From positions 1 to 24,126 of IMG/VR virus record IMGVR_UViG_3300017751_000228: DNA of 24,126 nt, one strand, 5' to 3'. A program made the translations under genes and the position numbers. Positions 8,861-24,026 of the stretch are shown one piece after another. The DNA comes from a virus. How positions within the stretch are numbered: the stretch's first letter is position 1; each line of letters opens with the position of its first letter. The notes below the pieces were generated by a model. That model was not told where the DNA came from, ran no database searches, and worked only from the letters and a program-made list of their open reading frames with translations.

Positions 8861-11800
8861 TTATCTTCCTAGTATAGAGGAGCTACTACCTTCCTTTTCT
8901 AAGTTAACTAAAGCTTTTCTTATGGACATCGCTGCTTTTCTTGCAGACTGTGGATCTGAAGGAACGCCTGTAACATTTACAATAATGTTATCTACAGATA
9001 TTCCTCCTCCAACTCCATTGATTCCGGTAGGAGTTACTCTTGTACCTTGAGGTCCAACACTTAATATTTCTGGACCAAACTCTCCAACCATAGCTTTTGT
9101 ACCTATCTTTGCAAAACCACCTTTATGTAAGAACTTATGTTTTGCATCAGGATCTTTAGGATTTAATATTTCAGGAATTTGACTTTGTATGTTTTCTATA
9201 ATATCAGGGAAAGGTATAGCCATACCAAAACTTGCATAAATTTCGTTTACGTTTTTCTTTATATTTTTTATTTTTCCTTCAGCTACAGAAGTGTCTATAT
9301 CTAATATTGCTCCTTGTTCTGCTTCAAATTTTATTTTGAATATTCCTTCAGAAATAGCGCCAAATTTTTCAGAATACTTGGTACCCATTGTGTCAGCTTG
9401 TTCTATTAAATTATCTATTTGTTCTTGAGGCATACCTGCAGCAGTAGCAATGTTTCTAAACTGTTCCACACCTTCTGGACCAAGAGCTATAATTTTATCT
9501 GCTATTTGCATTAACTCAATTTGTGTTCTGACTTGATCATTCATAGCATTATTTATTCCGCGTTTTGCTTGCTCTTCAGCAGATGATTGACCTTCAGTAT
9601 CTTTCTCTAACTCTGCTATTCTTTCTCTCAAGCTTACAATTTCATCTGCTTCGGCTAATGCATCTGCACCCATTGTCTTGACTAAATCTTTTTGGAACTG
9701 TTGTTCTGCTTTTGCTATATCTTTTTGTAAGCTAAGTATTTCTTCAAAACTGTCTCTATCTTGAAAACCAGTTATACCTACTGTAGTCCCTTGCATTTCA
9801 GCAAGACGTTCTTTTGCAGCTTGAAGTTCATCTTCAGTTGCTACACCTCTCTTAACAGCTTGCTCTAAGAAATCTATTTCTCTTTTAGCATCTTTAATTG
9901 CAAGTCTTTCAGAGGCTCTATCTGATTTATTAAGATCAGATTGCATTCTTAATAAACGAAGTTTTGCTTTATTTATTTGCAAATCTTCAAAAGCTGTTAC
10001 TACACCTTTTTCTCCAAATTTAGTTAAAGCCTCAACTAATTTAGCATTTTCATCATTAAGTTTTTTAGTTCTTTTTATACCTTCATTGACAGTATCGTTA
10101 TAAGCTTCTTGTGCTTCTGCTATTTTTTGCTGGCTTGATGCAGCTTTTGATAAGGTATCGTCAAAACCTAATATTAGATCAAAAGTATTAACCATATCAT
10201 CTTTAAATTTCTTTAATCCTGCTTTGTAAGCATCTCCAGAAAATAATCTTGTAGTTGCTGTAGCAATAGTGTCTTCCAAATTACCTATGTAGTTTGTAGC
10301 CCAACTCATTAACTCGCTTTGTTCGTCTTCTGAAAAAGTACTTAAATCAGTTGCTGCATCGTGTGCAGCATCCATAAGAGCTATTGAAAGAAGTCCTCCA
10401 TTGTTTTGGACTCCAAGTGTAAGAGCATCTATAAAAGCTTCACCATAAGGAACAAATCTTTTAGCAGGAGACTTGATTCCAAATTCTAATATAAGACCTT
10501 CTTCACCATTTTCAACTGCATCAATAATAGCTTGTTTAATTTGATCGCCACTTTCCCTAATACCTTTAGACATACCATCAACTACATCTCCACCATATTC
10601 TTCAAATTTTTCTTGTAGCTCTGTACTAGATAATTCTATTTCATCAGGTATTTCAGCAATAGCACGTAATGTAGGTTCTATAAGACCTCTTGCATTAGAT
10701 TCAGCTTCTGCTGCTAACTCTGGAGACTTTAAGAAATCTTGTGCTGCAGCTAAAGCAGCTGGTCCCTCTTCTGCCAGCATTGCAGCTAAAGCAGTAAATC
10801 CTTGAGCTTGTAAAAGAGTTATTGTGTTTACAAACTCTGCTCCTAAGACAGCTTGATCTTGTAAGTTTCGAGTTATCTCACTAGCAGACATTTGTATTTG
10901 ATCTGGAATGTCATTAAAAAGACTTGCAATTCCTCTAGAAGATTCTTTTGCTATATTTATAACATTTTTAGCAATTGTTTCTTGTTGAGTTAATATTGAA
11001 AATTGTTGCCTTAGTTCTTCATTCTGTGCATCCAATATTTCTTGTTCTATTGCTGCAATATGTTCTTTGACAGTTGCAGAGTATTCTGTATTAGCTATGA
11101 TACTTTCTGAAATTCCTCTTTCTCTATCTCTAAAAGCACCCATTTTTCTTTCGTCTGATATTTTTTCTTTTCTTTGTTTCAACTCTATGTCACTAAAAGA
11201 GGCATTACCTTCTCTTATTAATGTTTCTTCAGCTAAAAGTTCTAATTTATTTTCGTGAAAATCAATAATACCTTTACCAAGCAATCCTTCTTTATTTATT
11301 ATATCTTCCAAATTTTTTTCCATATTTTGAAGAAACGCTTGATTGGCTAAAGCTGATTGTTTCTCATCTTCAGTTTCAAAAAATCCAAATGGACCAACAG
11401 ATTTCAAATCTAATCTACCATCTTTCATTGTGTCTTCTATTGCTTTTTGTACTTTATCAAGCATTGAAACAGCAAGAACTTCAGGTTCTTCTCCTCCTAA
11501 CAATATTCTTTCCATAAAATTATCAACACCTAAATCTGCTTTTAAATCTGGAGATAGCGAATTTATGGATGTAAAGAATTTCCCTACTTCACCACCAGCA
11601 CCTGTCAATTTTTCAAATTCTACCTCAAATACACCTTGTAAGTTATTTTCTAAGTTTTTAATGTTCTTGTCTAATGAAACAATTTGATCATTAGCGTTAA
11701 TTATTTTAGTTATCTCACTATCAGTAAATCCTAATGCTTTCAAATTTTCCGTATCAACTTCATCAACAGAATCTATAAAATCTTGATAATTAGTAAATTG

Positions 11801-13372
11801 ATCATCTAAACCGCTTAATTCCATAAATTCTTTTTTTGTTTCAACAACATTGTTTTTTAACATATTTAGTTGCTCAGTAGCACCCATAGCAAAATCTTCT
11901 GCTTGTCCAAGTACATTAGTAAACAGTGCTGCTCCTCCAATATCAGATGCAACATCTAATGCTGATTTTATAGCAACTATTCCTGCAGTAATTGTTGTTA
12001 TGGCTATAGCTGCCATTGCAATATTTCCTGTAGCTGCTGCAGTACCGGCAGCTGCTGCACCTGCAGCTACTGCTGTCATTTGAAGATGTGCGTTAAGTTT
12101 TGCAATCAAAACAATCATCTTAGTTATGCTTGCTAAGGCAAAAGCACCACCAAGTACTTTAAGTACTTTTAAGAAAGTCAGTCCAGATTGTTCAGCTGCA
12201 AGGCTGAAAGATTGAAGAGTAAAAATAAAATTTCTAAAGATAGGTAGCAAACCTTCTGCAAATTCCATTGTAAATTCTTTTATTTGATTTTTTAGCAAAA
12301 CCATTTGCTGTTTAGTAGTAGCGAATTTTTTAGCTGCTTCAACATTTAAAGCTATGTTAGATTCATAAGCTGTTCTAGAGGTGATCATAGCATCTCTTAA
12401 TAATCCTTCTGCTGTTGCTAAACCACCGATAGCTAATTGAGTTCTTCTTTGTGATAGATTAAGTTTTTGTAAAGTATCTTGTAATCCGTCTACTCTTTCT
12501 TCAGCGCTACTTAGTCCTTCTATAAAATCAACGACTGCCATAGAAGCATCTTCACTAAAAGCTTGAACAAATTCTTCAGATGTCGTATCTGCAATAGCTG
12601 CAAATAAAGATAACTGTTCTCCTCCATTTTGTATAGCTCTTTGAATTTCTTGAAAAAGACGAGCTACAGCAGTACCACCAGCTTGTGATGGAACACCTAT
12701 AGCTTGAAGAGCAGTAGCAAAAGCTAAAGCGTCTTGAGTAGAAGCACCCGATTGTTCAGCTGCAGTTGCAATACGTAATACTGTTGTAATAATTTCATCT
12801 TCAGTTGCAGCAAAGTTGTTACCTAACTCAACTATTGCAGCACCTGTTCTTTCAAAAAAATTACCCATAGATTGTTCAGGTATGTTTGCAATAGCACCTA
12901 ACCTAGCTAGAGCAAGAGCTGCGTTTTCTGTGCTCAAAACAGTTGCAACAGAAAGTTTTGTTACAACTTCAATAAATTCTTCTAGACTCTCAGCACCTAT
13001 ACCTAATTGACCACCAAGCTCACCTATTCTTGCTAGCTCTGTAGCAGCAATTGGTAACTCTGTAGCTAAATCACGTATAGTGTCTGCTAATCTTAAAAGA
13101 ACAGCTTCGTCAGCATCAACAGTTTTTCTAACACCCGCAAAGGCATCTTCAAATTGTATTAAGCTTGCAATACCTGCAGCAGCGGCAGCACCCATACCAA
13201 CAGCAGCGGCACCAATAGATACGAAAGCTCCATTAGCAAGTGCATTTAAATTATTAAATACAGGTGCTAATTGTTTAGCTTGTTCATTAGCCTCATTAGC
13301 TATTTGCTCTGTACCAACTAAAGATGCTACTAAAGCAACATCTAATGCTATATCAGCTGATTTACCCGGCAT
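8861..13372 (-). CDS. Tail tape measure protein
   Basis: At 1503 aa this is the longest gene in the window. Tape measure proteins set tail length and are carried in the tube; applying the family rule of about 0.15 nm per residue gives a tail near 225 nm (inference). Residues about 50-72 are hydrophobic. Residues about 75-345 resemble the TP901-type core (FEDAFAGVRKTVDADEA, LPIAATELARIGELGGQLGI, GTAVARLFQEIQRAI). Residues about 398-470 form long hydrophobic Ala-rich segments that could enter a membrane during DNA injection. Long charged coiled coils fill the middle, and near the C-terminus MVGEFGPEILSVGPQGTRVTPTG matches a motif frequent in this family. No peptidase or lysozyme domain was seen. 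The start overlaps the stop of the GT chaperone (TAATG), which is the usual gene order. Confidence 0.95.
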   Translation of the reverse strand: MPGKSADIALDVALVASLVGTEQIANEANEQAKQLAPVFNNLNALANGAFVSIGAAAVGMGAAAAAGIASLIQFEDAFAGVRKTVDADEAVLLRLADTIRDLATELPIAATELARIGELGGQLGIGAESLEEFIEVVTKLSVATVLSTENAALALARLGAIANIPEQSMGNFFERTGAAIVELGNNFAATEDEIITTVLRIATAAEQSGASTQDALAFATALQAIGVPSQAGGTAVARLFQEIQRAIQNGGEQLSLFAAIADTTSEEFVQAFSEDASMAVVDFIEGLSSAEERVDGLQDTLQKLNLSQRRTQLAIGGLATAEGLLRDAMITSRTAYESNIALNVEAAKKFATTKQQMVLLKNQIKEFTMEFAEGLLPIFRNFIFTLQSFSLAAEQSGLTFLKVLKVLGGAFALASITKMIVLIAKLNAHLQMTAVAAGAAAAGTAAATGNIAMAAIAITTITAGIVAIKSALDVASDIGGAALFTNVLGQAEDFAMGATEQLNMLKNNVVETKKEFMELSGLDDQFTNYQDFIDSVDEVDTENLKALGFTDSEITKIINANDQIVSLDKNIKNLENNLQGVFEVEFEKLTGAGGEVGKFFTSINSLSPDLKADLGVDNFMERILLGGEEPEVLAVSMLDKVQKAIEDTMKDGRLDLKSVGPFGFFETEDEKQSALANQAFLQNMEKNLEDIINKEGLLGKGIIDFHENKLELLAEETLIREGNASFSDIELKQRKEKISDERKMGAFRDRERGISESIIANTEYSATVKEHIAAIEQEILDAQNEELRQQFSILTQQETIAKNVINIAKESSRGIASLFNDIPDQIQMSASEITRNLQDQAVLGAEFVNTITLLQAQGFTALAAMLAEEGPAALAAAQDFLKSPELAAEAESNARGLIEPTLRAIAEIPDEIELSSTELQEKFEEYGGDVVDGMSKGIRESGDQIKQAIIDAVENGEEGLILEFGIKSPAKRFVPYGEAFIDALTLGVQNNGGLLSIALMDAAHDAATDLSTFSEDEQSELMSWATNYIGNLEDTIATATTRLFSGDAYKAGLKKFKDDMVNTFDLILGFDDTLSKAASSQQKIAEAQEAYNDTVNEGIKRTKKLNDENAKLVEALTKFGEKGVVTAFEDLQINKAKLRLLRMQSDLNKSDRASERLAIKDAKREIDFLEQAVKRGVATEDELQAAKERLAEMQGTTVGITGFQDRDSFEEILSLQKDIAKAEQQFQKDLVKTMGADALAEADEIVSLRERIAELEKDTEGQSSAEEQAKRGINNAMNDQVRTQIELMQIADKIIALGPEGVEQFRNIATAAGMPQEQIDNLIEQADTMGTKYSEKFGAISEGIFKIKFEAEQGAILDIDTSVAEGKIKNIKKNVNEIYASFGMAIPFPDIIENIQSQIPEILNPKDPDAKHKFLHKGGFAKIGTKAMVGEFGPEILSVGPQGTRVTPTGINGVGGGISVDNIIVNVTGVPSDPQSARKAAMSIRKALVNLEKEGSSSSILGR

Positions 13373-14068: not shown

Positions 14069-14764
14069 TTACGGATTACTTGATCCACCTGCACCGGCAG
14101 CGTTTGTATTATCAACGATGTCGAACAAGTAGTTGTAACCATTACTATCTGAACCAACATTTAATGTTGTGTCAGGTACTAGTATCTTGAACTCTGTGCT
14201 CAAAACAACTTTTGTTGGGGCTTTAGCGTGTGCCATAGAGAAAGAACCAACGCTTACTGCGCGTGGGATTCTTACGTGTCTAGTGGCAACTCCGTTTGAG
14301 CCTTTTGGACCATCAGCAACTAACAACATTGCATACTCATTAAATGAGGATGATGTTGGGGGTACTAAGGTGTTATAACCTGATGCAGTTGCACCGGCAG
14401 CACCGTTAGCACCGTGTCCGATTTTACCGGATGTTGATGCTCCACCACCAAGAGCAATAATTAACTTAGCGTGTGAAGCTTGTGAAAGCTCACCTGTTAA
14501 TCTCACTTCTTGAGCGGTTTTAATTGTCTTAATTGGATCTACTTCTTCAGCCACCATAATGTCTTCAAAAGTTTTATCCATTTCAAGAGTCCAACCATCT
14601 TCAGAATAGCCTACTTCTTCCCAAGCAGGTGTCATAGCGGTTGGCGTATCAAACGCTCCGCCTGCATCTGTTGGGAAAGCTAATGAAGCTGTTGTTCGAT
14701 CCTTTAAATAAAGGACCCCAGTACCGATCAATACCTCAGATATTGAACCTTGTGTAGCTGGCAT
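14069..14764 (-). CDS. Major tail protein (tail tube)
   Basis: The protein is 231 aa: MPATQGSISEVLIGTGVLYL, then AWEEVGYSEDGWTLEMDKTFEDIMVAEEVDPIKTIKTAQEVRLTGELSQ in spirit (residues about 47-95), a layout typical of siphovirus tail tube subunits: an N-terminal strand ending in GVLYLK, then the E-xGxxxxG-type beta core, then TAQEVRLTGELSQ, which precedes the loop. The C-terminus is Gly/Ala/Asn-rich (NTNAAGAGGSSNP). The start follows GGAGAGAGTAATT, an acceptable ribosome binding site. It forms stacked hexamer rings around the tape measure. The neighbours agree: the tail terminator is upstream and the chaperones are downstream. It is preceded by a gap with strong palindromes, which may set its high expression. 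Confidence 0.83.
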   Translation of the reverse strand: MPATQGSISEVLIGTGVLYLKDRTTASLAFPTDAGGAFDTPTAMTPAWEEVGYSEDGWTLEMDKTFEDIMVAEEVDPIKTIKTAQEVRLTGELSQASHAKLIIALGGGASTSGKIGHGANGAAGATASGYNTLVPPTSSSFNEYAMLLVADGPKGSNGVATRHVRIPRAVSVGSFSMAHAKAPTKVVLSTEFKILVPDTTLNVGSDSNGYNYLFDIVDNTNAAGAGGSSNP

Positions 14765-14832: not shown

Positions 14833-15135
14833 TTACTCTTCTTCTGCTTGAAACCAATCAGATGAAGGGTCTTCTTCCACGACTTCGTCAACTTCAACCT
14901 TGTCGGTAAGGTCAACGCGCTCGATTACTTGGTTAGTGGCAATAGACTCATCTTCAGCGATGAAGACTTGTCCCTGCATAGTGTCGCTCATTGGCTTCAT
15001 ATGCTTGCTCATATCTTTCCAAGTAGACTCTGAGACTTCTACCCAAGAATTTTTTGTAAATAGAGTTTCTTCACCATTAACATCCCACCACACTTGTGTG
15101 AAAGTCATTAATGGATTAACTTGTACTTTTTTCAT
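14833..15135 (-). CDS. Small acidic tail-region protein (100 aa)
   Basis: No family recognised. The N-terminal part, MKKVQVNPLMTFTQVWWDVN, is followed by a beta-like stretch with SWVEVSESTWKDMSKHMKPM. The last 30 residues are very acidic (VDEVVEEDPSSDWFQAEEE). Composition and place, between the tail terminator and the tail tube gene, suggest a small virion or assembly protein. The acidic tail could bind a basic partner such as the 1047-aa protein two genes upstream, although nothing in the sequence proves it. Its ATG shares one base with the stop of the tail terminator gene (TAATG). Conserved order in relatives would be the main test of function. Confidence 0.68.
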   Translation of the reverse strand: MKKVQVNPLMTFTQVWWDVNGEETLFTKNSWVEVSESTWKDMSKHMKPMSDTMQGQVFIAEDESIATNQVIERVDLTDKVEVDEVVEEDPSSDWFQAEEE

Positions 15136-15605
15136 TATGTATCATACCTATATGTCATTCCTATAGTAATAGTATACAACCCCAAGCCAGTTTCTGTTTC
15201 CTCTATTCGTGAAATTCCATCTACAATTTCAAAACCATAAATGAATGCTTTATCACCATTACTTAAAGTAATTGCGTTGTTAGATTCATTAAAAGCTGCT
15301 TGTTGAACTGCTGCTGCTAAAGAATAAGCTTGTGCATAATCGGGTTGAGGGTCTGTACCATTACCACCCCATCTACCTGCATAACAGCTAATGGGAATAA
15401 TTGCTTCTTCAATTAATACTTCAGAAAATTGATCAAGAGGTACACCACCAGCTCTAAAATAAGTCATAAATGGTAGTTGAGCATTTCTAGGCAATCTAGT
15501 TGCCACTCTAGTGCTACATATATTATTTATTGGTGTTCTTGCTATAGCCCAAGCTCTAAATACCACTTCTGCATCTGGTGCAGAATTTTGATTTCCATAA
15601 ACCAT
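15135..15605 (-). CDS. Tail terminator / tail completion protein
   Basis: The protein is 156 aa. Residues about 14-60 (AEVVFRAWAIARTPINNICSTRVATRLP) and the sequence after it (LPFMTYFRAGGVP) match the pattern of tail terminator (gpU/DUF3168-like) proteins: an N-terminal helix, a strand with LP(F)xTYxxxGG, then alternating strands and helices (PDYAQAYSLAAAVQQAAF). The C-terminal half, KAFIYGFEIVDGISRIEE with TGLGLYTITIGMTYRY, fits a final beta-hairpin in these proteins, which often report on deviation from a target. It is expected to sit as a ring where the tail meets the head. AGGAG lies 5-6 nt before the start, and the gene starts 8 nt after the stop of the giant upstream gene. Confidence 0.72.
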   Translation of the reverse strand: MVYGNQNSAPDAEVVFRAWAIARTPINNICSTRVATRLPRNAQLPFMTYFRAGGVPLDQFSEVLIEEAIIPISCYAGRWGGNGTDPQPDYAQAYSLAAAVQQAAFNESNNAITLSNGDKAFIYGFEIVDGISRIEETETGLGLYTITIGMTYRYDT

Positions 15606-15612
15606 TTATCTC

Positions 15613-18600
15613 CTAGTAATCTTCAAATCTTATTATAAACCCTCTAGTTGATTCTTCTTCGTGTATATTGTATCCGTGAGTAGCTTTTGTATTAGTTCTA
15701 CTTGTAATTCCTTTTTCTGCATCTCTAATTGCAGCACCAAAGAATGCAGCATCAGTAAAAAAATCTAAGTTATTCTTAGGTAAATTATCTCCTAACATTT
15801 CTGCAGGTGTAGCTCTTAAATATCTGATTTCATTACTATTTAATCTTCCTTTGTTATGTTGACCATCAGCAATACCATAAACACGTTTTTTATCTGCTGC
15901 AATGTTTTCACCTTTTCTAGATACTCTTAATTGTCCAGTATCACCATCTTCAATAAACACTACATTCTGTCCTCTATTCGCTGTAACGTTTTGTACTTTT
16001 CCTCCGCCAGTAGCTTGTAAACTTATACCTTTTTTATTTAACTTACCACCTTTTATACCAGCTCTTAATGTCATTTGAGCTGTAGGTAATGATGGGTCTG
16101 TATAAGTTAATTCAATAATGTTTTTACCTTTAAATTCTACATTTGTAGGATTAATTTTTTTAATTGCAGATTTACCTGCTTTTGAACCTATAGGAGTAAC
16201 ACTGCTTGAATGTACTTCTACTACATATTTTCCAAGTCCTCTAGTGTCTGCTAACGCTGCTTGTGATTTATCTATTTTAAAACTTAAGTTAGTCATACCT
16301 TTGCTACCTTTAGTAGGCATTCTTGCAGCACCGGCAGCAGTTTCACTTTGTCTAGATACAGATTTAATTTTTCTACTTGTTCCACTAACCATAACTGGTT
16401 GAAAGTAATCGCCACCTATTTGTTTTGCAGTTTCTCGTTCAATTAATTCTTGAGTAATTTTTGTTCTTTGACCCATTATGGATCCTTTTAATGTGTCTTG
16501 CTCAAATCCCATTCTTGTGTGTAGTAGCAAATCCTGTTTTCCATATAAACTTGTTTTAGTAGGATTATTTCTATCTTTATCTTCTGCAACACCAAATAAC
16601 CTTTTTTTAATTTTATGGATTCTTTGATCTATTTCTCCACCTTCTGGTCGTCTATCTTTAACTTTTCTAGTCTTACTACCAGAAAGTAATGCTTTTACAT
16701 TATCTTCTGTATAAGTTCTACCGTTATCTATATAAGGTCTTGTATATGTGGCACCTTTATCTTTAATACCTAGAACTATTTTACCGTCATATTCTGTGTA
16801 GTTTCCTTGAGCTTGTAGTTGTTTTATGTAACCATATTTTGCATCACTTCCTACACTTGAAACTGCTGCTGTTGAGTTCATTCCTTTTAATTCCTTTTTA
16901 GCTTTTTCTAATACTCTTAATTCATTTTCTAGTTTTTTAATTTCAGCTTTTATTGTAATTAATTCAGGTTCATTTGCATATGCAACATCCGCGTGTACTC
17001 TACCAGTTTTATCTATAGAAAGCTTATTAATTTTACCTGTAGCAAAGTTTTGTTTCATTACTCGTTCAGTAGCTTCCATATTTATTTCTTTAATTTGAGA
17101 AGGTGTTAAATTTTGTTCTATGTTTTCTCTAATTTTACTTGTATGACTTGCATTACCTCTAATACCTGCATTTGTGTCAGTTTTTAAAATGCTTCCTGTT
17201 TTTGTATTTATATCAAAATGTTCTATAAATCGATCTACATCTTTTATAGTTGCATTTTGTATTTTATTTCCATTAAATTTAAAAGCTATAATTCCTTTCT
17301 CTCTAGCATCTTTTAACAAAGCTCTAGTACTTTCATCTAGCTTTATTTCTCCTAAATCAAATACTTGTTCTCTTCTAATTTTTACTTTTGAAGGTTCTAA
17401 AACTGATGATTTATATCTATTATTTTGACCTACTAAATATCTAGATTTACTTCTATCTTTAGCTTTCAACTCTCGCATATCTGCAATAATTCTTACTTGT
17501 GTTCCTGTTGATTGTACACCTATATTTTGTTTGGATTTTATAGTTCGTTTAGAACCTTTAACAGTTCTAGTTTTATTTTTACCACCTTTTTTTCTACGCT
17601 TATATTCTGCTGTTTGAAATGTTGTTTTTACATCTGCTAATCTACCACCATATAAATATTCCATAGTTGCTTCAGCACCAGCTTCAATACCTTCTTCATA
17701 CGCCAGACCAAGTTTGCTTGTCATTTCCATACCATCTTGACCTTCATATCGACTGCTAACTTTTTTAGTACGTCTTTTATTTTTTCCAATTTCTTCATCT
17801 TTCTTAGCTCTCTCACCACTATCTTTAAGCCAAATTTTATGCATTGTTTTTTCTCTAGCATTAAAAGTTGTTTTAACCATTTCCTTACCAGATAATCTAC
17901 CCATTCCTACAGGGTCTATAATTTGTGCAACTTTTTTGATTACAGGTCTATAAAGTTTAGCTACAGACTCAACTGCTTTAGTAGCGAAAAATGTTGGTGC
18001 ATAAAATGCATCATTTTGACCAGTTTGAGGATTAAATAAAATACCTCCATATTGAGCTATCCAAACATAAGGAGCTTTATCTGCAACATTAGTTGTAGGA
18101 TTACTACCACCTACTGAAACTCTCCATTCTCCTAAAACACCTTTTCTTGGATTTATTACAGGATCTCTCATAAAAACAGAGTCAGCTAAGTTGTTTGGAC
18201 CAAATTGAACAATTTTGTTATTTATGTTCATAGTAAATTCAGTTCTTGGAGCAGTAGCTTTTAATGCAACTAATAAACTTCTATGTATCATTTGAAAGAC
18301 ATTTCCTTCTCCCTTTACGCTAAACAATTGTTGTTTTATATTATTTGTTGCTTTAGGACCGAAGATTTCCAATATTCCACCTTTTTTTAATTTAGTGTGG
18401 AACCTTTTATTCATATAGCTACCAACTCTTGCTCGAACAAAACGTAAGGCAATGTTGTTAGTTGCTGGTAATACTGCGTTTACGGCTAAACCACCAGCTT
18501 TACCTAGAGCACGATTAATTACACGTTGTTTTACTTTTCCATTTGCTAGAGCATTAATATCTCGAACAGCTCTGTTAGCTGAAAGTATATTAGCTCTTTG

Positions 18601-18756
18601 CCTTCTAACATTACCTAATCTCTTAGGTGCCAAAGATATAGCAAAACCCGCAGTTCTAGATAATGTTCTAACTAATGAAGATACTTTATTAGCTCTAGAA
18701 TAACCTGTAAGGTCTCTATCTGGATTGTCCGTTACCGGTAAGCCACCTAAACCCAT
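15613..18756 (-). CDS. Giant basic protein with embedded gp10-like neck domain
   Basis: The protein is 1047 aa. It sits between head closure and tail terminator, the slot where an HK97 gp10-like neck protein of roughly 130-170 aa normally lies. Residues about 155-282 (LKATAPRTEFTM, DSVFMRDPVI, WRVSVGG, KAPYVWIAQYGGILF, FYAPTFFATKAVESV) keep the gp10-like order: protein core with an A-P-R-T motif, beta strands, then a Y-x-x-x-QYGG turn. The N-terminal 150 residues are rich in Arg/Ala helices. From residue 285 onward the sequence is extremely Lys/Arg-rich (KKDEEIGKNKRRTKK; KRRKKGGKNKTR) with a helix/coiled coil at about 597-625, and no recognised domain. No transmembrane segment, signal peptide or catalytic motif was seen. 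The extension may bind DNA or be ejected; function unknown. The frame is a single unbroken ORF. Confidence 0.75.
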   Translation of the reverse strand: MGLGGLPVTDNPDRDLTGYSRANKVSSLVRTLSRTAGFAISLAPKRLGNVRRQRANILSANRAVRDINALANGKVKQRVINRALGKAGGLAVNAVLPATNNIALRFVRARVGSYMNKRFHTKLKKGGILEIFGPKATNNIKQQLFSVKGEGNVFQMIHRSLLVALKATAPRTEFTMNINNKIVQFGPNNLADSVFMRDPVINPRKGVLGEWRVSVGGSNPTTNVADKAPYVWIAQYGGILFNPQTGQNDAFYAPTFFATKAVESVAKLYRPVIKKVAQIIDPVGMGRLSGKEMVKTTFNAREKTMHKIWLKDSGERAKKDEEIGKNKRRTKKVSSRYEGQDGMEMTSKLGLAYEEGIEAGAEATMEYLYGGRLADVKTTFQTAEYKRRKKGGKNKTRTVKGSKRTIKSKQNIGVQSTGTQVRIIADMRELKAKDRSKSRYLVGQNNRYKSSVLEPSKVKIRREQVFDLGEIKLDESTRALLKDAREKGIIAFKFNGNKIQNATIKDVDRFIEHFDINTKTGSILKTDTNAGIRGNASHTSKIRENIEQNLTPSQIKEINMEATERVMKQNFATGKINKLSIDKTGRVHADVAYANEPELITIKAEIKKLENELRVLEKAKKELKGMNSTAAVSSVGSDAKYGYIKQLQAQGNYTEYDGKIVLGIKDKGATYTRPYIDNGRTYTEDNVKALLSGSKTRKVKDRRPEGGEIDQRIHKIKKRLFGVAEDKDRNNPTKTSLYGKQDLLLHTRMGFEQDTLKGSIMGQRTKITQELIERETAKQIGGDYFQPVMVSGTSRKIKSVSRQSETAAGAARMPTKGSKGMTNLSFKIDKSQAALADTRGLGKYVVEVHSSSVTPIGSKAGKSAIKKINPTNVEFKGKNIIELTYTDPSLPTAQMTLRAGIKGGKLNKKGISLQATGGGKVQNVTANRGQNVVFIEDGDTGQLRVSRKGENIAADKKRVYGIADGQHNKGRLNSNEIRYLRATPAEMLGDNLPKNNLDFFTDAAFFGAAIRDAEKGITSRTNTKATHGYNIHEEESTRGFIIRFEDY

Positions 18757-18758
18757 AG

Positions 18759-19094
18759 TTATTCTCTATAAAGGCAGTCTATAATTGTATAGCAAAGTTC
18801 TCCTTTTGCATCTGTTCTACTATTGACACCAGAAATTTCATAATACTTTGTGCCTTCCTTGATTCTGTCATTAGCCTTTACGTTTACAGTGTCATCGAAA
18901 TAAATAGTGATAGATTCTACTATTGTATTTCTACCGTCTCTATCTTCTGCGGTACCGTTGCTAATTATTCTACATTTAACATCTGCTTGATTGGATGTCC
19001 AATCTGAAGTTAAGTTACCTCTATCATCTACACCAGAAGCTGCGTGTCTTTCTATTGTTACTGTGCTGTGAAATAAGTTGTCATTGAGTGCCAT
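18759..19094 (-). CDS. Head closure / head-tail adaptor protein
   Basis: The protein is 111 aa. The pattern LFHSTVTIERHAASGVDDRGN, then the Trp-containing turn (DWTSNQADVKCRII), NTIVESITIYFDDTVNVKANDRI and YYEISGVNSRTDAKGELCYTI matches the small beta-barrel phage head-tail joining family (SPP1 gp16 / HK97 gp9-like). In these, short strands surround a VxxxDRI turn that reads as VKANDRIKEG here. It should plug the connector after DNA packaging. No Shine-Dalgarno is visible; instead a TATGAT hexamer ends 6 nt before ATG (19101-19106), so a leaderless start is possible. It precedes the giant neck protein by two bases. Confidence 0.78.
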   Translation of the reverse strand: MALNDNLFHSTVTIERHAASGVDDRGNLTSDWTSNQADVKCRIISNGTAEDRDGRNTIVESITIYFDDTVNVKANDRIKEGTKYYEISGVNSRTDAKGELCYTIIDCLYRE

Positions 19095-19124: not shown

Positions 19125-19457
19125 TTAGAAGAAATCGTCTATGAAGATAGGTCCATATTCCCCATAAGATACAGAATAGATACTGTGACCATAAAAATCT
19201 AAAGCCATTTGCCAAGCTTGATCATTTTTGCCCATACCAGTAGTTTCTTCATCTTCCCAATCAATACTTTTGTCGTCTATATATTCACTAAATAAATTGT
19301 TAACAATAATTGCTGATGAATAAGCAACACACTCACCTAATTTAGGAACAGCTGCAACACCTAGTATTGCGTTATCGTGTCCATCTAGCATTTCTGCTTC
19401 AGGATTAGCATCCTGTATATATCTAATTACTTCTTGTATCTTCTGTTCCTGATTCAT
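19125..19457 (-). CDS. Conserved phage protein of unknown function (110 aa)
   Basis: The central motif DGHDNAILGVAAVPKLGECVAYSS (residues about 25-48) is like the D-G-x-D-x-AILG-V-A ... V-A-Y-S pattern found in short phage proteins of unknown function that often sit among accessory genes. The N-terminal helix, QKIQEVIRYIQDANPEA, and the acidic C-terminus with YGPIFIDDFF complete it. It overlaps the end of the HNH gene by 35 nt and starts after AAGGAAAG. Family resemblance is from memory and was not checked against a database. It is not a known virion component in neck clusters, and with the HNH gene it looks like an accessory insertion. Confidence 0.65.
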   Translation of the reverse strand: MNQEQKIQEVIRYIQDANPEAEMLDGHDNAILGVAAVPKLGECVAYSSAIIVNNLFSEYIDDKSIDWEDEETTGMGKNDQAWQMALDFYGHSIYSVSYGEYGPIFIDDFF

Positions 19458-19728
19458 TCCACTTTCCTTTCAAGTAAGCAGTTAGCAACATTCTTATAGC
19501 ATAAGAGCTGCCCTGTTGTTTGCGACCATCATAAATATCGTGATGTGTCATACATAAGACAGCAACGTTTTCAGGATCATACTTTCTACCTTCATTGCCA
19601 CCCATACCTTTGCCGTGTATGTGTGCAAGTTGTAGTTGAGACCTTGAATTACAATCAGCCCATTCACATTGATTCTTTGCTCTAATAAAAGCGAACAATC
19701 TAAGCTTTGTCATTCTGTCATCTGCCAT
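19423..19728 (-). CDS. HNH endonuclease
   Basis: The protein is 101 aa. Visible HNH features: C21 and C26 (CEWADC), LAHIHGKGMGG (H36, H38), DPENVAVLC (N54, C59), then THHDIYDG (H62, H63). The Cys pairs and His would hold zinc, and the His-Asn-His set forms the beta-beta-alpha nuclease fold. Similar small HNH proteins occur near terminase genes and aid packaging, or act as mobile homing enzymes. This one is far from the packaging genes and is flanked by a terminator and a second accessory gene, which fits a mobile element better. No Shine-Dalgarno precedes the ATG; TATACT (19735-19740) ends 6 nt upstream, so a leaderless transcript from a local promoter is possible. Confidence 0.88.
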   Translation of the reverse strand: MADDRMTKLRLFAFIRAKNQCEWADCNSRSQLQLAHIHGKGMGGNEGRKYDPENVAVLCMTHHDIYDGRKQQGSSYAIRMLLTAYLKGKWNESGTEDTRSN

Positions 19729-19892: not shown

Positions 19893-20534
19893 TTAAGAAG
19901 TTTTTTCTCTATTTGATTTTCTATGACACAATGAACAAATAGATTCTCTTTTATTCTTTTCTCTTTTAGATTTATTAAATTTGTTTAATGGTTTTTCTTT
20001 TTGACAAACTAAACAAACTTTACTATTTTCATCTGATTTAAGAGTTTCTTTATATTGATGAGTTTGATCTCTAAGACCTATTAGGCAATCTTTGCAATAT
20101 AAAGTATAACCACTTTTATATTTTTGAGATTTTTCAAAATTATTAACGTCTTTTTCTTCTCCGCATTCTAAACATTTTTTCCAAGTAGGATTCCAAGATA
20201 ATTTATCAGATTCTTCTTTTGCTTTGTTTACTCTCTCTACAAGCTCTGGATTATCTTTCATCCAAGCCTTAAATCTTTCATATCCTATAGGAAGTTCTTC
20301 ATAAGTTTTTGAAGTAGTTAAAGAGCCCTTTCCTTCAGCAATTCGGTCTAAAACTATTTGTGCTATTTCTGAATTGTAAGCTGATCTAGGCGCAATACCT
20401 GCTTGTTCTCTTAGTTGCCTAACTCTTTCATCTGAAACGCCCCACTCTTGAGCCCATAAAGATAACTTTTTATGGGGATCGTTTAAAAATAAATCTCTAG
20501 CTTCTTCTACTGTTGGCGCTATTCTATTTGGCAT
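19893..20534 (-). CDS. Helix-turn-helix / double zinc-ribbon protein
   Basis: The protein is 213 aa. Residues about 24-48 (LSLWAQEWGVSDERVRQLREQ) look like a helix-turn-helix. Then come two zinc ribbons with identical spacing, CX2C-X22-CX2C: C121, C124, C147, C150 and C174, C177, C200, C203, offset by 53 residues. The units read CLECGEEKDVNNFEKSQ...YCKDC and CLVCQKEKPLNKFNKSK...ICSLC, a ribbon type often found in front of HNH nuclease domains. No HNH motif is present in this protein, but a separate HNH gene follows after a terminator. The C-terminal end is Lys/Arg-rich. It starts after AGGAGG. A DNA-binding role is likely; whether it regulates, guides a nuclease, or derives from a broken homing enzyme is open. 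Confidence 0.7.
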   Translation of the reverse strand: MPNRIAPTVEEARDLFLNDPHKKLSLWAQEWGVSDERVRQLREQAGIAPRSAYNSEIAQIVLDRIAEGKGSLTTSKTYEELPIGYERFKAWMKDNPELVERVNKAKEESDKLSWNPTWKKCLECGEEKDVNNFEKSQKYKSGYTLYCKDCLIGLRDQTHQYKETLKSDENSKVCLVCQKEKPLNKFNKSKREKNKRESICSLCHRKSNREKTS

Positions 20535-20552: not shown

Positions 20553-21200
20553 TTACTCGAAAAATATCCTTTTATAAGGCATAAGAGCTGTTATGTCGAA
20601 AGCACTTAATACTGGTCCTAAAGAAGTTGATAAAGGATCTCCGTAAGACAAACTTAAATCTCCTACACTTTCACTTTGAACATTATAAAAATTACCATCA
20701 TTACCGCTATCTGATTTATGTGATTCTATTTCTGTTTTTTTCTGCAATGAAGATAGCATTAAGTTATTGTTTAATAATCGAGCTACACACCTAGCAGAAG
20801 TAAACCTCATAACTTCAGGAATGGTTTGAAAACCTCCTGCATAAACTACTGTGACATTTTGCATACGAGCATCAGACCATCTAGATTTGGAAGTTTTTAC
20901 TAAATAACCTTCTTCTAAGTAAGCGACATAATCTTTATCGTTTCCTAGAGCTAATGTGAAACCATCTTCAACTACTGAAGTAATTGAAACGACAGGAACT
21001 ACTTTTAAAAATAAATGAGTTCTTTCTTTGCCATCAAAGTTTTCTGTAATTGATGAATTATATTCTGGGTCAAACCCTAGAAATCTTTTGATAGCTGAAT
21101 CAACATATGGAATATAGACATTTGTAATGTCTGATTCTAATGTTGATGAATAATCAATTTGAATTACTGATTCTACATCAGACACACTACAAAGAGCCAT
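20553..21200 (-). CDS. Head-tail connector (gp6-like adaptor)
   Basis: The protein is 215 aa. The N-terminal helices (VSDVESVIQIDYSSTLESDITNVYIPYVDSAIKRFLGFD) with the later LFLKVVPVVSITSVVEDG hairpin and a PEVMRFTSARCVARLLNN helix match the connector proteins that bind below the portal (HK97 gp6 / phage gp15-like). These typically start with a four-helix region followed by a KxxPVxSVTSV-type beta motif. It has a strong Shine-Dalgarno, AAGGAG, 5 nt before the ATG. It lies one small gene after the capsid gene, as expected. The C-terminal 60 residues, with GDLSLSYGDPLS, are the usual variable end. A ring of this protein would extend the portal channel. Confidence 0.75.
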   Translation of the reverse strand: MALCSVSDVESVIQIDYSSTLESDITNVYIPYVDSAIKRFLGFDPEYNSSITENFDGKERTHLFLKVVPVVSITSVVEDGFTLALGNDKDYVAYLEEGYLVKTSKSRWSDARMQNVTVVYAGGFQTIPEVMRFTSARCVARLLNNNLMLSSLQKKTEIESHKSDSGNDGNFYNVQSESVGDLSLSYGDPLSTSLGPVLSAFDITALMPYKRIFFE

Positions 21201-22817: not shown

Positions 22818-24026
22818 TTATACTTCTATGTCTACAGTCTCGGCTATAAGCCTTTGACCTTCGACCCATTCAGCGTCAAAATCTTCGTCAGTTGATTCGC
22901 TGTTATCCTCTGATTCTTCGGACACTTCCGAGACAGGAGTCTCTTCAGTTTCTTCTTCCTCAGAACTGTTGTCGTCTAGAATTTCTTCTTCGACTTCATC
23001 ATTGATAGCTTCTTCGACTACACCGTTATTCTCATCGGTTTCACTATCATCAGTTGGTTGCTCTTCTACTTCTGACTCTAAAACAGCTTCATTACCGAAC
23101 TCATCGACAAATGAATCTAATTCTGCCCAAGCATCGCTAAGATCGTCCTGAACCGTGCGAAGTGCTTCAGTAGCTTTTGCGCCTAACTTTCTACCGTCTT
23201 TTTGACGGAGATGCGAAATTGCTTTCGCTCTAGTTATAAGGTCATCCAATGCAGCAAGCACATCTTTAACCTCTTCCGAAAAAGTCTTAGTGACTTCTTC
23301 TGAAACTTTTAATTCTTTTTCTTCTTCAACCTCTTCAAATTCCGTATCTATTTCTATTTCTTCTTCAGAATTTTCTTCAGCTGGAGCTTCTTCAACTTCA
23401 GCTTCTTCAGCTGGAGCTTCTTCTACAGGAGCTTCTTCTGCGGGAATTTCTTCTGCAGGAGCTTCTTCTTCTGGATCTGGTTGATTCATACTTCCTGTAG
23501 TCATTACAGCTTTTGCTTCTGCAATTTGTTCTACTAATTCGTTATTAGACTTAATAGCCATTGTGTATGTTTCTTGATTAGCACCAACAAGAACTGGTGA
23601 TACTTCGTAAACAGTTAGACCTTTAAGGTATCTAACACTTTCTTCATCATCACTACCGTCTTTTTGTATTTTTCCATATTCGGAATCATCTACTTTAAAA
23701 CCAAAAGACCATTGTTGTAAATCGCCCATTGCTTTTACTAAGTTGTAAGCTTCTTTTCCAGACTCTGTGTCCATAAAGAACTCACCTTTAAATGTCGCTT
23801 TATCATCATCTTGTATGATTTGACCTTTACCAATTGGCATATCCCATTTATGAGCCCATACCATAGGCACATCACCTGATTTAAAACCTGATTTAATTGA
23901 GCCTGACTTTACTATGTCGCCATCTGAATCTACTTTATCGAAGACTGAAAAAACTGCAGCGACTTCGCCTTTTCCATCATCTTTAATCTCTAAGTCTATT
24001 GACTTAATATCAAAATTTTCTGACAC
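22818..24026 (-). CDS. Prohead protease with acidic scaffold-like extension
   Basis: The protein is 402 aa and starts with GTG (24026) after AGGAG; an upstream ATG in frame was not seen. The protease domain (about 1-160) matches the HK97-type family: FSVFDKVDSDGDIVKSGSI, MVWAHKWDMPIGKG (H59), MGDLQQWSFGFK (S107), LTVYEVSPVLVGAN (E141). H59, S107 and E141 are the candidate catalytic residues. Family members are usually near 200 aa; this one continues for 240 residues that are very acidic (residues 187-219 are EEAP-type repeats) with a helical part at about 250-310. The extension probably serves as a scaffold, with the capsid delta domain. No separate scaffold gene was seen between the protease and capsid genes. 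Confidence 0.9.
   Translation of the reverse strand: MSENFDIKSIDLEIKDDGKGEVAAVFSVFDKVDSDGDIVKSGSIKSGFKSGDVPMVWAHKWDMPIGKGQIIQDDDKATFKGEFFMDTESGKEAYNLVKAMGDLQQWSFGFKVDDSEYGKIQKDGSDDEESVRYLKGLTVYEVSPVLVGANQETYTMAIKSNNELVEQIAEAKAVMTTGSMNQPDPEEEAPAEEIPAEEAPVEEAPAEEAEVEEAPAEENSEEEIEIDTEFEEVEEEKELKVSEEVTKTFSEEVKDVLAALDDLITRAKAISHLRQKDGRKLGAKATEALRTVQDDLSDAWAELDSFVDEFGNEAVLESEVEEQPTDDSETDENNGVVEEAINDEVEEEILDDNSSEEEETEETPVSEVSEESEDNSESTDEDFDAEWVEGQRLIAETVDIEV
23370..23468 (-). repeat. Acidic EEAP-type coding repeat in protease extension
   Basis: Residues 187-219 of the prohead protease are short repeats of EEAP, AEEIPAEE and AEE character, built from near-identical GAAGAAGCTCC-like units. On the plus strand they appear as repeated gagcttcttc. 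Likely slippage-prone, giving length variation between relatives. Confidence 0.75.

What the first reader, a model, noticed from the sequence alone, without database searches (positions are those of the whole stretch)
15613..18756. 1047-aa basic protein occupying the gp10 neck slot
In siphoviruses, the gene between head closure and tail terminator is usually one small neck protein. Here one unbroken frame is about seven times that size. A gp10-like core lies at residues about 155-282, preceded by a 150-residue Arg/Ala-rich head and followed by about 760 residues of Lys/Arg-rich sequence with no recognised domain. The extension may bind packaged DNA, be ejected into the host, or be a polymorphic effector carried in the virion. 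The family relation to gp10 is inferred from order and motifs.
Basis: partly seen in the sequence, partly recalled or inferred. Interest (0 to 1): 0.68.

Follow-up and report, generated by a model that had tools for sequence, protein, structure and literature searches.

The report
Giant phage tail completion protein
In a group of uncultured, mostly marine viruses of bacteria, the small plug protein that normally sits where the virus head meets its tail has become a giant 1,047-1,791-residue protein; its plug part is recognisable by predicted structure, and what the rest does is unknown but can now be tested.

Summary
15613-18756 is one unbroken 1047-aa frame (minus strand, net charge +80) filling the slot between head-closure Hc1 and the tail terminator. 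It is not a one-off. Relatives found through the capsid protein, the core and the terminator all carry one giant frame in that slot (1047-1791 aa), and no short version was seen. Residues 126-292 fold confidently (pLDDT 83) into the tail-completion-protein (TCP/Ne1; HK97 gp10, 80alpha gp51, SPP1 gp16.1) fold. The best solved match is the 80alpha TCP (9mu2, Z 7.7; next 3.0), and the best predicted viral matches are gp10-type proteins. Sequence profiles (PF04883) do not detect the relation. Studied TCPs are 112-255 aa. A second clade puts extra sequence at the DNA-facing loop of the same fold. The extensions match no known domain, are nearly cysteine-free like the tape measure, diverge fast but collinearly under purifying selection, and share no detectable similarity between clades. 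That argues against a swappable toxin. Most likely reading: a neck plug whose long arm sits in the neck/tail channel and takes part in genome delivery. The arm's role is inferred.

The parts
15613..18756 (-). giant tail completion protein (TCP) gene, 1047 aa, net charge +80, no cysteine
   Evidence: ORF and translation; relatives
18382..18756 (-). residues 1-125: Arg/Ala-rich N-terminal head; its second half (about 62-125) is conserved across clades
17881..18381 (-). residues 126-292: tail-completion (gp10-like) fold; signature NNLAxSV...GG...ADKAPY...QYGG...PTFFxxxA
   Evidence: alignment A5, AlphaFold pLDDT 82.7, structure matches, cross-clade homology
18196..18243 (-). residues 172-187: apex region with an extra hairpin; the same point where clade 2 carries an insertion of roughly 250-600 aa
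15616..17880 (-). residues 293-1047: 755-aa C-terminal extension, Lys/Arg-rich, mixed alpha/beta, no known domain
15616..15636 (-). C-terminal tail IIRFEDY, conserved ([IV]IRFE[DE]x) in all complete clade-1 members aligned
   Evidence: alignment A1
18759..19094 (-). head closure protein Hc1 (upstream neighbour, 2 bases from the giant gene)
   Evidence: phrog_501, Pfam Phage_HCP
15135..15605 (-). tail terminator (downstream neighbour)
   Evidence: phrog_123 in 6 of 9 family members
8861..13372 (-). tape measure protein, 1503 aa, net charge -92, no cysteine
20553..21200 (-). head-tail adaptor
   Evidence: phrog_442
14069..14764 (-). major tail protein
   Evidence: phrog_476, Phage_TTP_17

Best explanation
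The protein is a giant member of the tail completion proteins (TCP, neck protein Ne1; the gp10/gpZ/gp16.1 slot). SHOWN by computation: slot, TCP-like core fold, family-wide giant size, and extensions under purifying selection. INFERRED: as in phage 80alpha, the core sits as a plug in the neck channel, one side capping the end of the packaged DNA and the other pairing with the tape-measure N-termini. In 80alpha both helices of the TCP pack with the tape-measure helices below it, so the 755-residue C-terminal extension, which starts where 80alpha gp51 ends, would leave the plug on the tail side and lie in the neck/tail channel. On infection it would leave with or just after the tape measure and ahead of the DNA, helping to hold back, time and route the DNA into the cell, an enlarged form of the DNA-routing role shown for SPP1 gp16.1. 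In the second clade extra mass is also inserted at the DNA-facing apex.
For: Slot Hc1-TCP-terminator conserved in all intact relatives. Core fold pLDDT 82.7, pTM 0.76. Best solved match 9mu2_P, the 80alpha TCP, Z 7.7 over 90 of its 109 residues, next unrelated match 3.0. Predicted viral matches with probability about 1 include annotated tail components and HK97 gp10 family proteins. Signature [EQN][YFL]G[GT]...P.F...A is shared with ten gp10s and gp51. Cysteine is 7 in 46,134 residues against 0.45% in five other virion proteins; the tape measure, also a channel protein, has 0 in 47,042. The giant protein and the tape measure are the fastest-diverging proteins of the module in the closest pair: giant 41% (best segment), tape measure 53%, capsid 86%, tail tube 86%, terminator 81%. 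Orientation of the TCP, DNA and tape measure: PMC11661146. DNA-routing role: PMC11099176.
Against: The extension is not tape-like: its helical periodicity is far weaker than the tape measure's (z 2.2 against 13), and a globular extension may not fit the channel. No confident model of the extension exists (pLDDT 40). Foldseek alone gave no PDB match below E = 0.001, and Z 7.7 is below the usual comfort level of 8. Sequence profiles do not link the core to gp10. SPP1 gp16.1 is thought not to enter the cell (PMC11099176), and T5's putative TCP sits on the side of the tail tip (PMC11784142), so location is not fixed across TCPs. Cysteine is also absent from the tail tube protein, so that clue is not specific to channel proteins.
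Confidence: 0.45

Rival explanations
1. The core is a TCP but the extension faces the head and binds or organises the end of the packaged DNA; it stays in the virion.
For: Net +80 in the window protein and +68 to +104 in complete clade-1 relatives, against acidic neighbours; TCPs touch the DNA end; clade 2 inserts sequence at the DNA-facing apex.
Against: Charge is not conserved across the family: -5 to +75 in complete clade-2 proteins, and C-terminal parts range from -26 to +69. Both termini of a TCP point away from the DNA in 80alpha (inferred).
Confidence: 0.2
2. The extension is a virion-borne effector delivered into the host, possibly polymorphic.
For: Fast divergence compared with the core; extensions of the three groups are not detectably related; phage tail-channel proteins such as the tape measure do leave the virion.
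Against: No toxin or defence domain in Pfam, NCBIfam or PADLOC. Close relatives diverge smoothly, nearly without gaps, dN below dS, with no cassette swaps. Length is conserved within subgroups.
Confidence: 0.12
3. The extension lies outside the neck as a collar, whisker or adhesion device anchored by the TCP core.
For: Size and fast evolution would suit a surface-exposed part; TCPs are poorly localised, and T5 p143 lies at the side of the tail tip (PMC11784142).
Against: No known adhesion or carbohydrate-binding domain; cysteine depletion like the channel protein TMP; the TCP core is inside the neck in 80alpha.
Confidence: 0.1
4. The likeness of the core to gp10 is only a common alpha/beta arrangement; the protein is an unrelated giant that happens to occupy the slot.
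For: No profile-level similarity to gp10; Z 7.7 lies in the range that unrelated folds can reach (note).
Against: The one clear match in the PDB second look is a solved TCP, well above the next (7.7 against 3.0); several of the predicted viral matches are annotated gp10 or tail component; slot and signature residues agree.
Confidence: 0.06

Closest known systems
Staphylococcus phage 80alpha gp51 (tail completion protein, PDB 9mu2)
   Same: gene slot between joining protein and terminator; long helix, loop with hairpin and short helix, C-terminal helix; motif [EQ][FY]G[TG]...P.F; Tyr at the position of the DNA-capping Y78 in clade 1 (motif alignment, inferred)
   Different: 115 aa and nothing after the C-terminal helix; here 755 more residues follow it and about 125 precede the core; no sequence-profile similarity
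HK97 gp10 / Pfam PF04883
   Same: same slot Hc1-gp10-terminator; same signature; predicted gp10-family structures are matches of the core model
   Different: 149 aa; PF04883 does not detect this protein at E of 1 or less
SPP1 gp16.1 and lambda gpZ
   Same: same slot and class of neck protein; [quoted passage not shown]
   Different: 141 and 192 aa; no long termini
tape measure proteins
   Same: cysteine-free, fast-diverging, long
   Different: extension lacks the strong helical periodicity; the tape measure is a separate gene here

Membership tests
Tail completion proteins in the broad sense (TCP / Ne1) | single gene between head closure/joining protein and tail terminator | tested here: met
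Tail completion proteins in the broad sense (TCP / Ne1) | TCP fold: N-terminal helix, loop with hairpin and short helix, C-terminal helix | tested here: met
   (Z 7.7 to 9mu2_P; clear margin, moderate absolute score)
Tail completion proteins in the broad sense (TCP / Ne1) | small size (112-255 aa in studied members; a description of known members, not a defining criterion) | tested here: not met
   1047-1791 aa here; range from PMC11099176
Tail completion proteins in the broad sense (TCP / Ne1) | present in the tail/neck; needed for tail completion or DNA routing | not testable with these tools
   needs virions and a cultured host
Pfam PF04883 HK97-gp10_like | match above the curated cut-off of the profile | tested here: not met
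   the profile hits HK97 and 80alpha correctly
Polymorphic toxin / virion-borne effector | recognisable toxin domain at the C-terminus | tested here: not met
Polymorphic toxin / virion-borne effector | abrupt swapping of C-terminal cassettes between close relatives | tested here: not met
   13 pairs, smooth collinear divergence
Tape measure-like channel protein | long helical, coiled-coil-like periodicity | tested here: not met
   alpha-moment z 2.2 (clade 1), 4.0-5.3 (clade 2 C-terminal parts) against 13.0 for the tape measure

The most novel reading that the evidence does not exclude
A whole group of tailed phages has turned the small neck plug into a second giant channel protein: a covalent plug-plus-arm that fills the neck/tail channel, is released with the tape measure and forms part of the conduit that carries DNA across the envelope of its hosts, probably aquatic Actinobacteria.
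Probability: 0.3. Interest if true: 0.82.

Novelty: new variant of a known kind. Interest (0 to 1): 0.62.

Why it matters
Tail completion proteins are widespread in long-tailed phages, yet their place and action stayed 'elusive for half a century' (PMC11099176), and 80alpha gp51 is the one reported in place in the neck (PMC11661146). A group whose TCP is 4 to 16 times larger gives a natural, easily visible tag: roughly 90-180 kDa of extra mass should show in electron microscopy and proteomics of these virions. It also shows that the TCP fold tolerates very large additions at two sites, the tail-facing end and the DNA-facing apex. Annotation pipelines miss the family, since no profile in Pfam, PHROGs or NCBIfam hits it.

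Tried and rejected
Direct tblastn of the protein in cultured phages, and a direct search of IMG/VR, gave nothing; relatives came only through the capsid, core and terminator. No relative was found in bacterial genomes. AlphaFold on the whole protein with 9 sequences failed (pLDDT 40). Profile-profile comparison with ten gp10 proteins was not significant for the core or any other segment. Foldseek against the PDB alone gave no match below E = 0.001. More distant capsid relatives examined have ordinary small genes in the slot (Microbacterium phage FlameThrower 87 aa; uncultured MW202444), and relatives of the latter show no giant gene in that position. Joint alignment of clade-2 N-terminal and core fragments in one file misaligned them, so only core fragments were used for the fold. 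Length of the giant protein against tape-measure length: Spearman 0.67 overall but not significant within clades, so it may only reflect kinship. A DNA-binding role from charge alone was dropped because charge is not conserved.

Full report
1. Observation. The window is a 24,126-base IMG/VR virus record, a fragment. The frame 15613-18756 is open on the minus strand and encodes 1047 aa. Gene order on that strand: protease, major capsid protein, small gene, adaptor, two nuclease-like genes and a small gene, Hc1, the giant gene, tail terminator, small gene, tail tube, tail assembly chaperone, tape measure, tail tip and fibre genes. Hc1 is supported by PHROGs and Pfam. The terminator is supported by phrog_123 in 6 of 9 members of its family, best 4e-7. 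HK97 has the same order with a 149-aa gp10 in the slot, so the size ratio of seven is right.

2. It is a family trait. The protein finds nothing in cultured phages and nothing directly in IMG/VR. Anchoring on the capsid protein gave 80 loci. In every locus that holds both Hc1 and terminator, the slot is one giant frame. Anchoring on the core motif gave 50 loci, with the core inside a giant frame wherever the frame was complete, 1108-1791 aa in this set. Anchoring on the terminator gave 59 loci: 58 with a complete giant frame of 1098-1791 aa directly upstream and one cut by the locus end. Many of these loci are the same contigs, so the counts overlap; there are 36 non-redundant proteins at 85% identity. 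L029 has the frame interrupted near a contig end, which may be a sequencing error or a real frameshift. No relative was found in one genome each of 84,980 species by these searches.

3. Architecture. Clade 1 (window, L004, L006, L007, L011, L014, L015, L017, L019, L086, L088) has about 125 residues, then the core, then up to about 900 residues. Clade 2 (all others) has the same N-terminal region (hhalign E 2e-4 between clade 1 and subgroup 2a, 1.5e-17 between subgroups 2a and 2b) and the same core (hmmsearch E 5e-4, hhalign E 3e-6), but an insertion of roughly 250-600 residues between the first core helix and the sheet, and a C-terminal part of about 550-900 residues. The C-terminal parts and insertions of the three groups (1, 2a, 2b) show no detectable similarity to each other. 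In clade 1 the last residues [IV]IRFE[DE]x are conserved.

4. The core is a tail completion protein. AlphaFold on residues 126-292 with 36 aligned sequences gives pLDDT 82.7, pTM 0.76. In the PDB second look the best match is 9mu2_P, the tail completion protein gp51 of phage 80alpha in the SaPI1 neck: Z 7.7, 90 of 109 residues, rmsd 2.9; the next entry scores 3.0. Foldseek alone gives no PDB match below E = 0.001. Against predicted viral proteins it gives E 3e-5 and 5e-4 for the best two, and many of the leading named matches are 'putative tail component' or 'HK97 gp10 family'. The signature [EQN][YFL]G[GT]...P.F...A and the preceding NL..S[VI] agree with gp10s and gp51. PF04883 and profile comparisons do not see the relation. 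The weak points are the moderate Z and the fact that the first core helix is covered by only seven sequences.

5. Known TCPs. Those studied are 112-255 aa (PMC11099176). In 80alpha one TCP molecule sits in the neck channel; its loop caps the DNA end through Y78 and F81, its hairpin forms a sheet with three tape-measure N-termini, and its two helices pack with the tape-measure helices below (PMC11661146). In SPP1, particles without gp16.1 eject DNA outside the cell (PMC11099176). T5's putative TCP lies at the side of the tail tip, and TCPs had not been localised in other phages at that time (PMC11784142).

6. The extension. There is no known domain in Pfam, PHROGs, NCBIfam, PADLOC or PDB sequences for the window protein or relatives. 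Helical periodicity is weak compared with the tape measure (z 2.2 in clade 1, 4.0-5.3 in clade 2, against 13.0), so it is not a second coiled-coil tape. In 13 pairs of relatives it diverges faster than the core in most cases, but collinearly and with dN below dS: purifying selection, no swapping. Cysteine: 7 in 46,134 residues, against 0 in 47,042 for the tape measure and 0.45% in protease, capsid, adaptor, terminator and Hc1; the tail tube protein also has none, so this is a hint only. Net charge is +80 here and up to +104 in clade 1, but ranges down to -5 in clade 2; clade-1 tape measures are strongly acidic (-63 to -92, some of them incomplete).

7. Mechanism. Shown by computation: slot, fold of the core, universal giant size in the group, purifying selection. 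Inferred: plug position in the neck; tail-side exit of the C-terminal extension; a role in retaining, timing and routing DNA together with the tape measure. I give the TCP identity about 0.9 and the channel/delivery role of the extension about 0.45.

8. Host. WhiB, a regulator found only in Actinobacteria (PMC3861242), occurs in 10 of 20 related records, and the photosystem gene family PF00124 (which includes psbA) in none. The group therefore probably infects aquatic Actinobacteria. No clade-1 record searched carried WhiB, so the host of the window virus itself is not shown.

9. Novelty. The slot and fold are known; the size, the two extension sites and the group-wide fixation are, as far as the held literature shows, not described. 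It is filed as a new variant of a known kind.

Noticed in passing
window 22818-24026: The head maturation protease carries a long acidic Glu/Ala-rich C-terminal tail (net -86 for 402 aa), perhaps a fused scaffold.
   Followed up: no
window 19423-19728 and 19893-20534: An HNH-like gene and a Cys-rich Zn-finger gene (Pfam Stc1 7e-6) sit inside the neck gene cluster; homologues are found in 33 and 59 loci of the capsid-anchored set.
   Followed up: partly
related records G011, G013, G015, G016, G017, G019, G021, G022, G026, G034: WhiB genes, pointing to actinobacterial hosts for clade 2.
   Followed up: partly
related records: Tape measure frames range from about 1400 to 3147 aa within one related group, so tail length should vary more than twofold.
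   Followed up: no
L029:5352-7262: The giant gene is interrupted: 300 aa, then a second frame of 288 aa running off the contig end; sequencing error or real frameshift.
   Followed up: no
window 15613-18756: Strongest GC dip and AT skew of the window (GC 0.29-0.33, AT skew about -0.3 on the + strand), reflecting the Lys-rich coding.
   Followed up: no
window 8861-13372: Tape measure is very acidic (-92) in contrast to the positive tape measure reported for 80alpha; clade-1 giant TCPs are very basic.
   Followed up: partly
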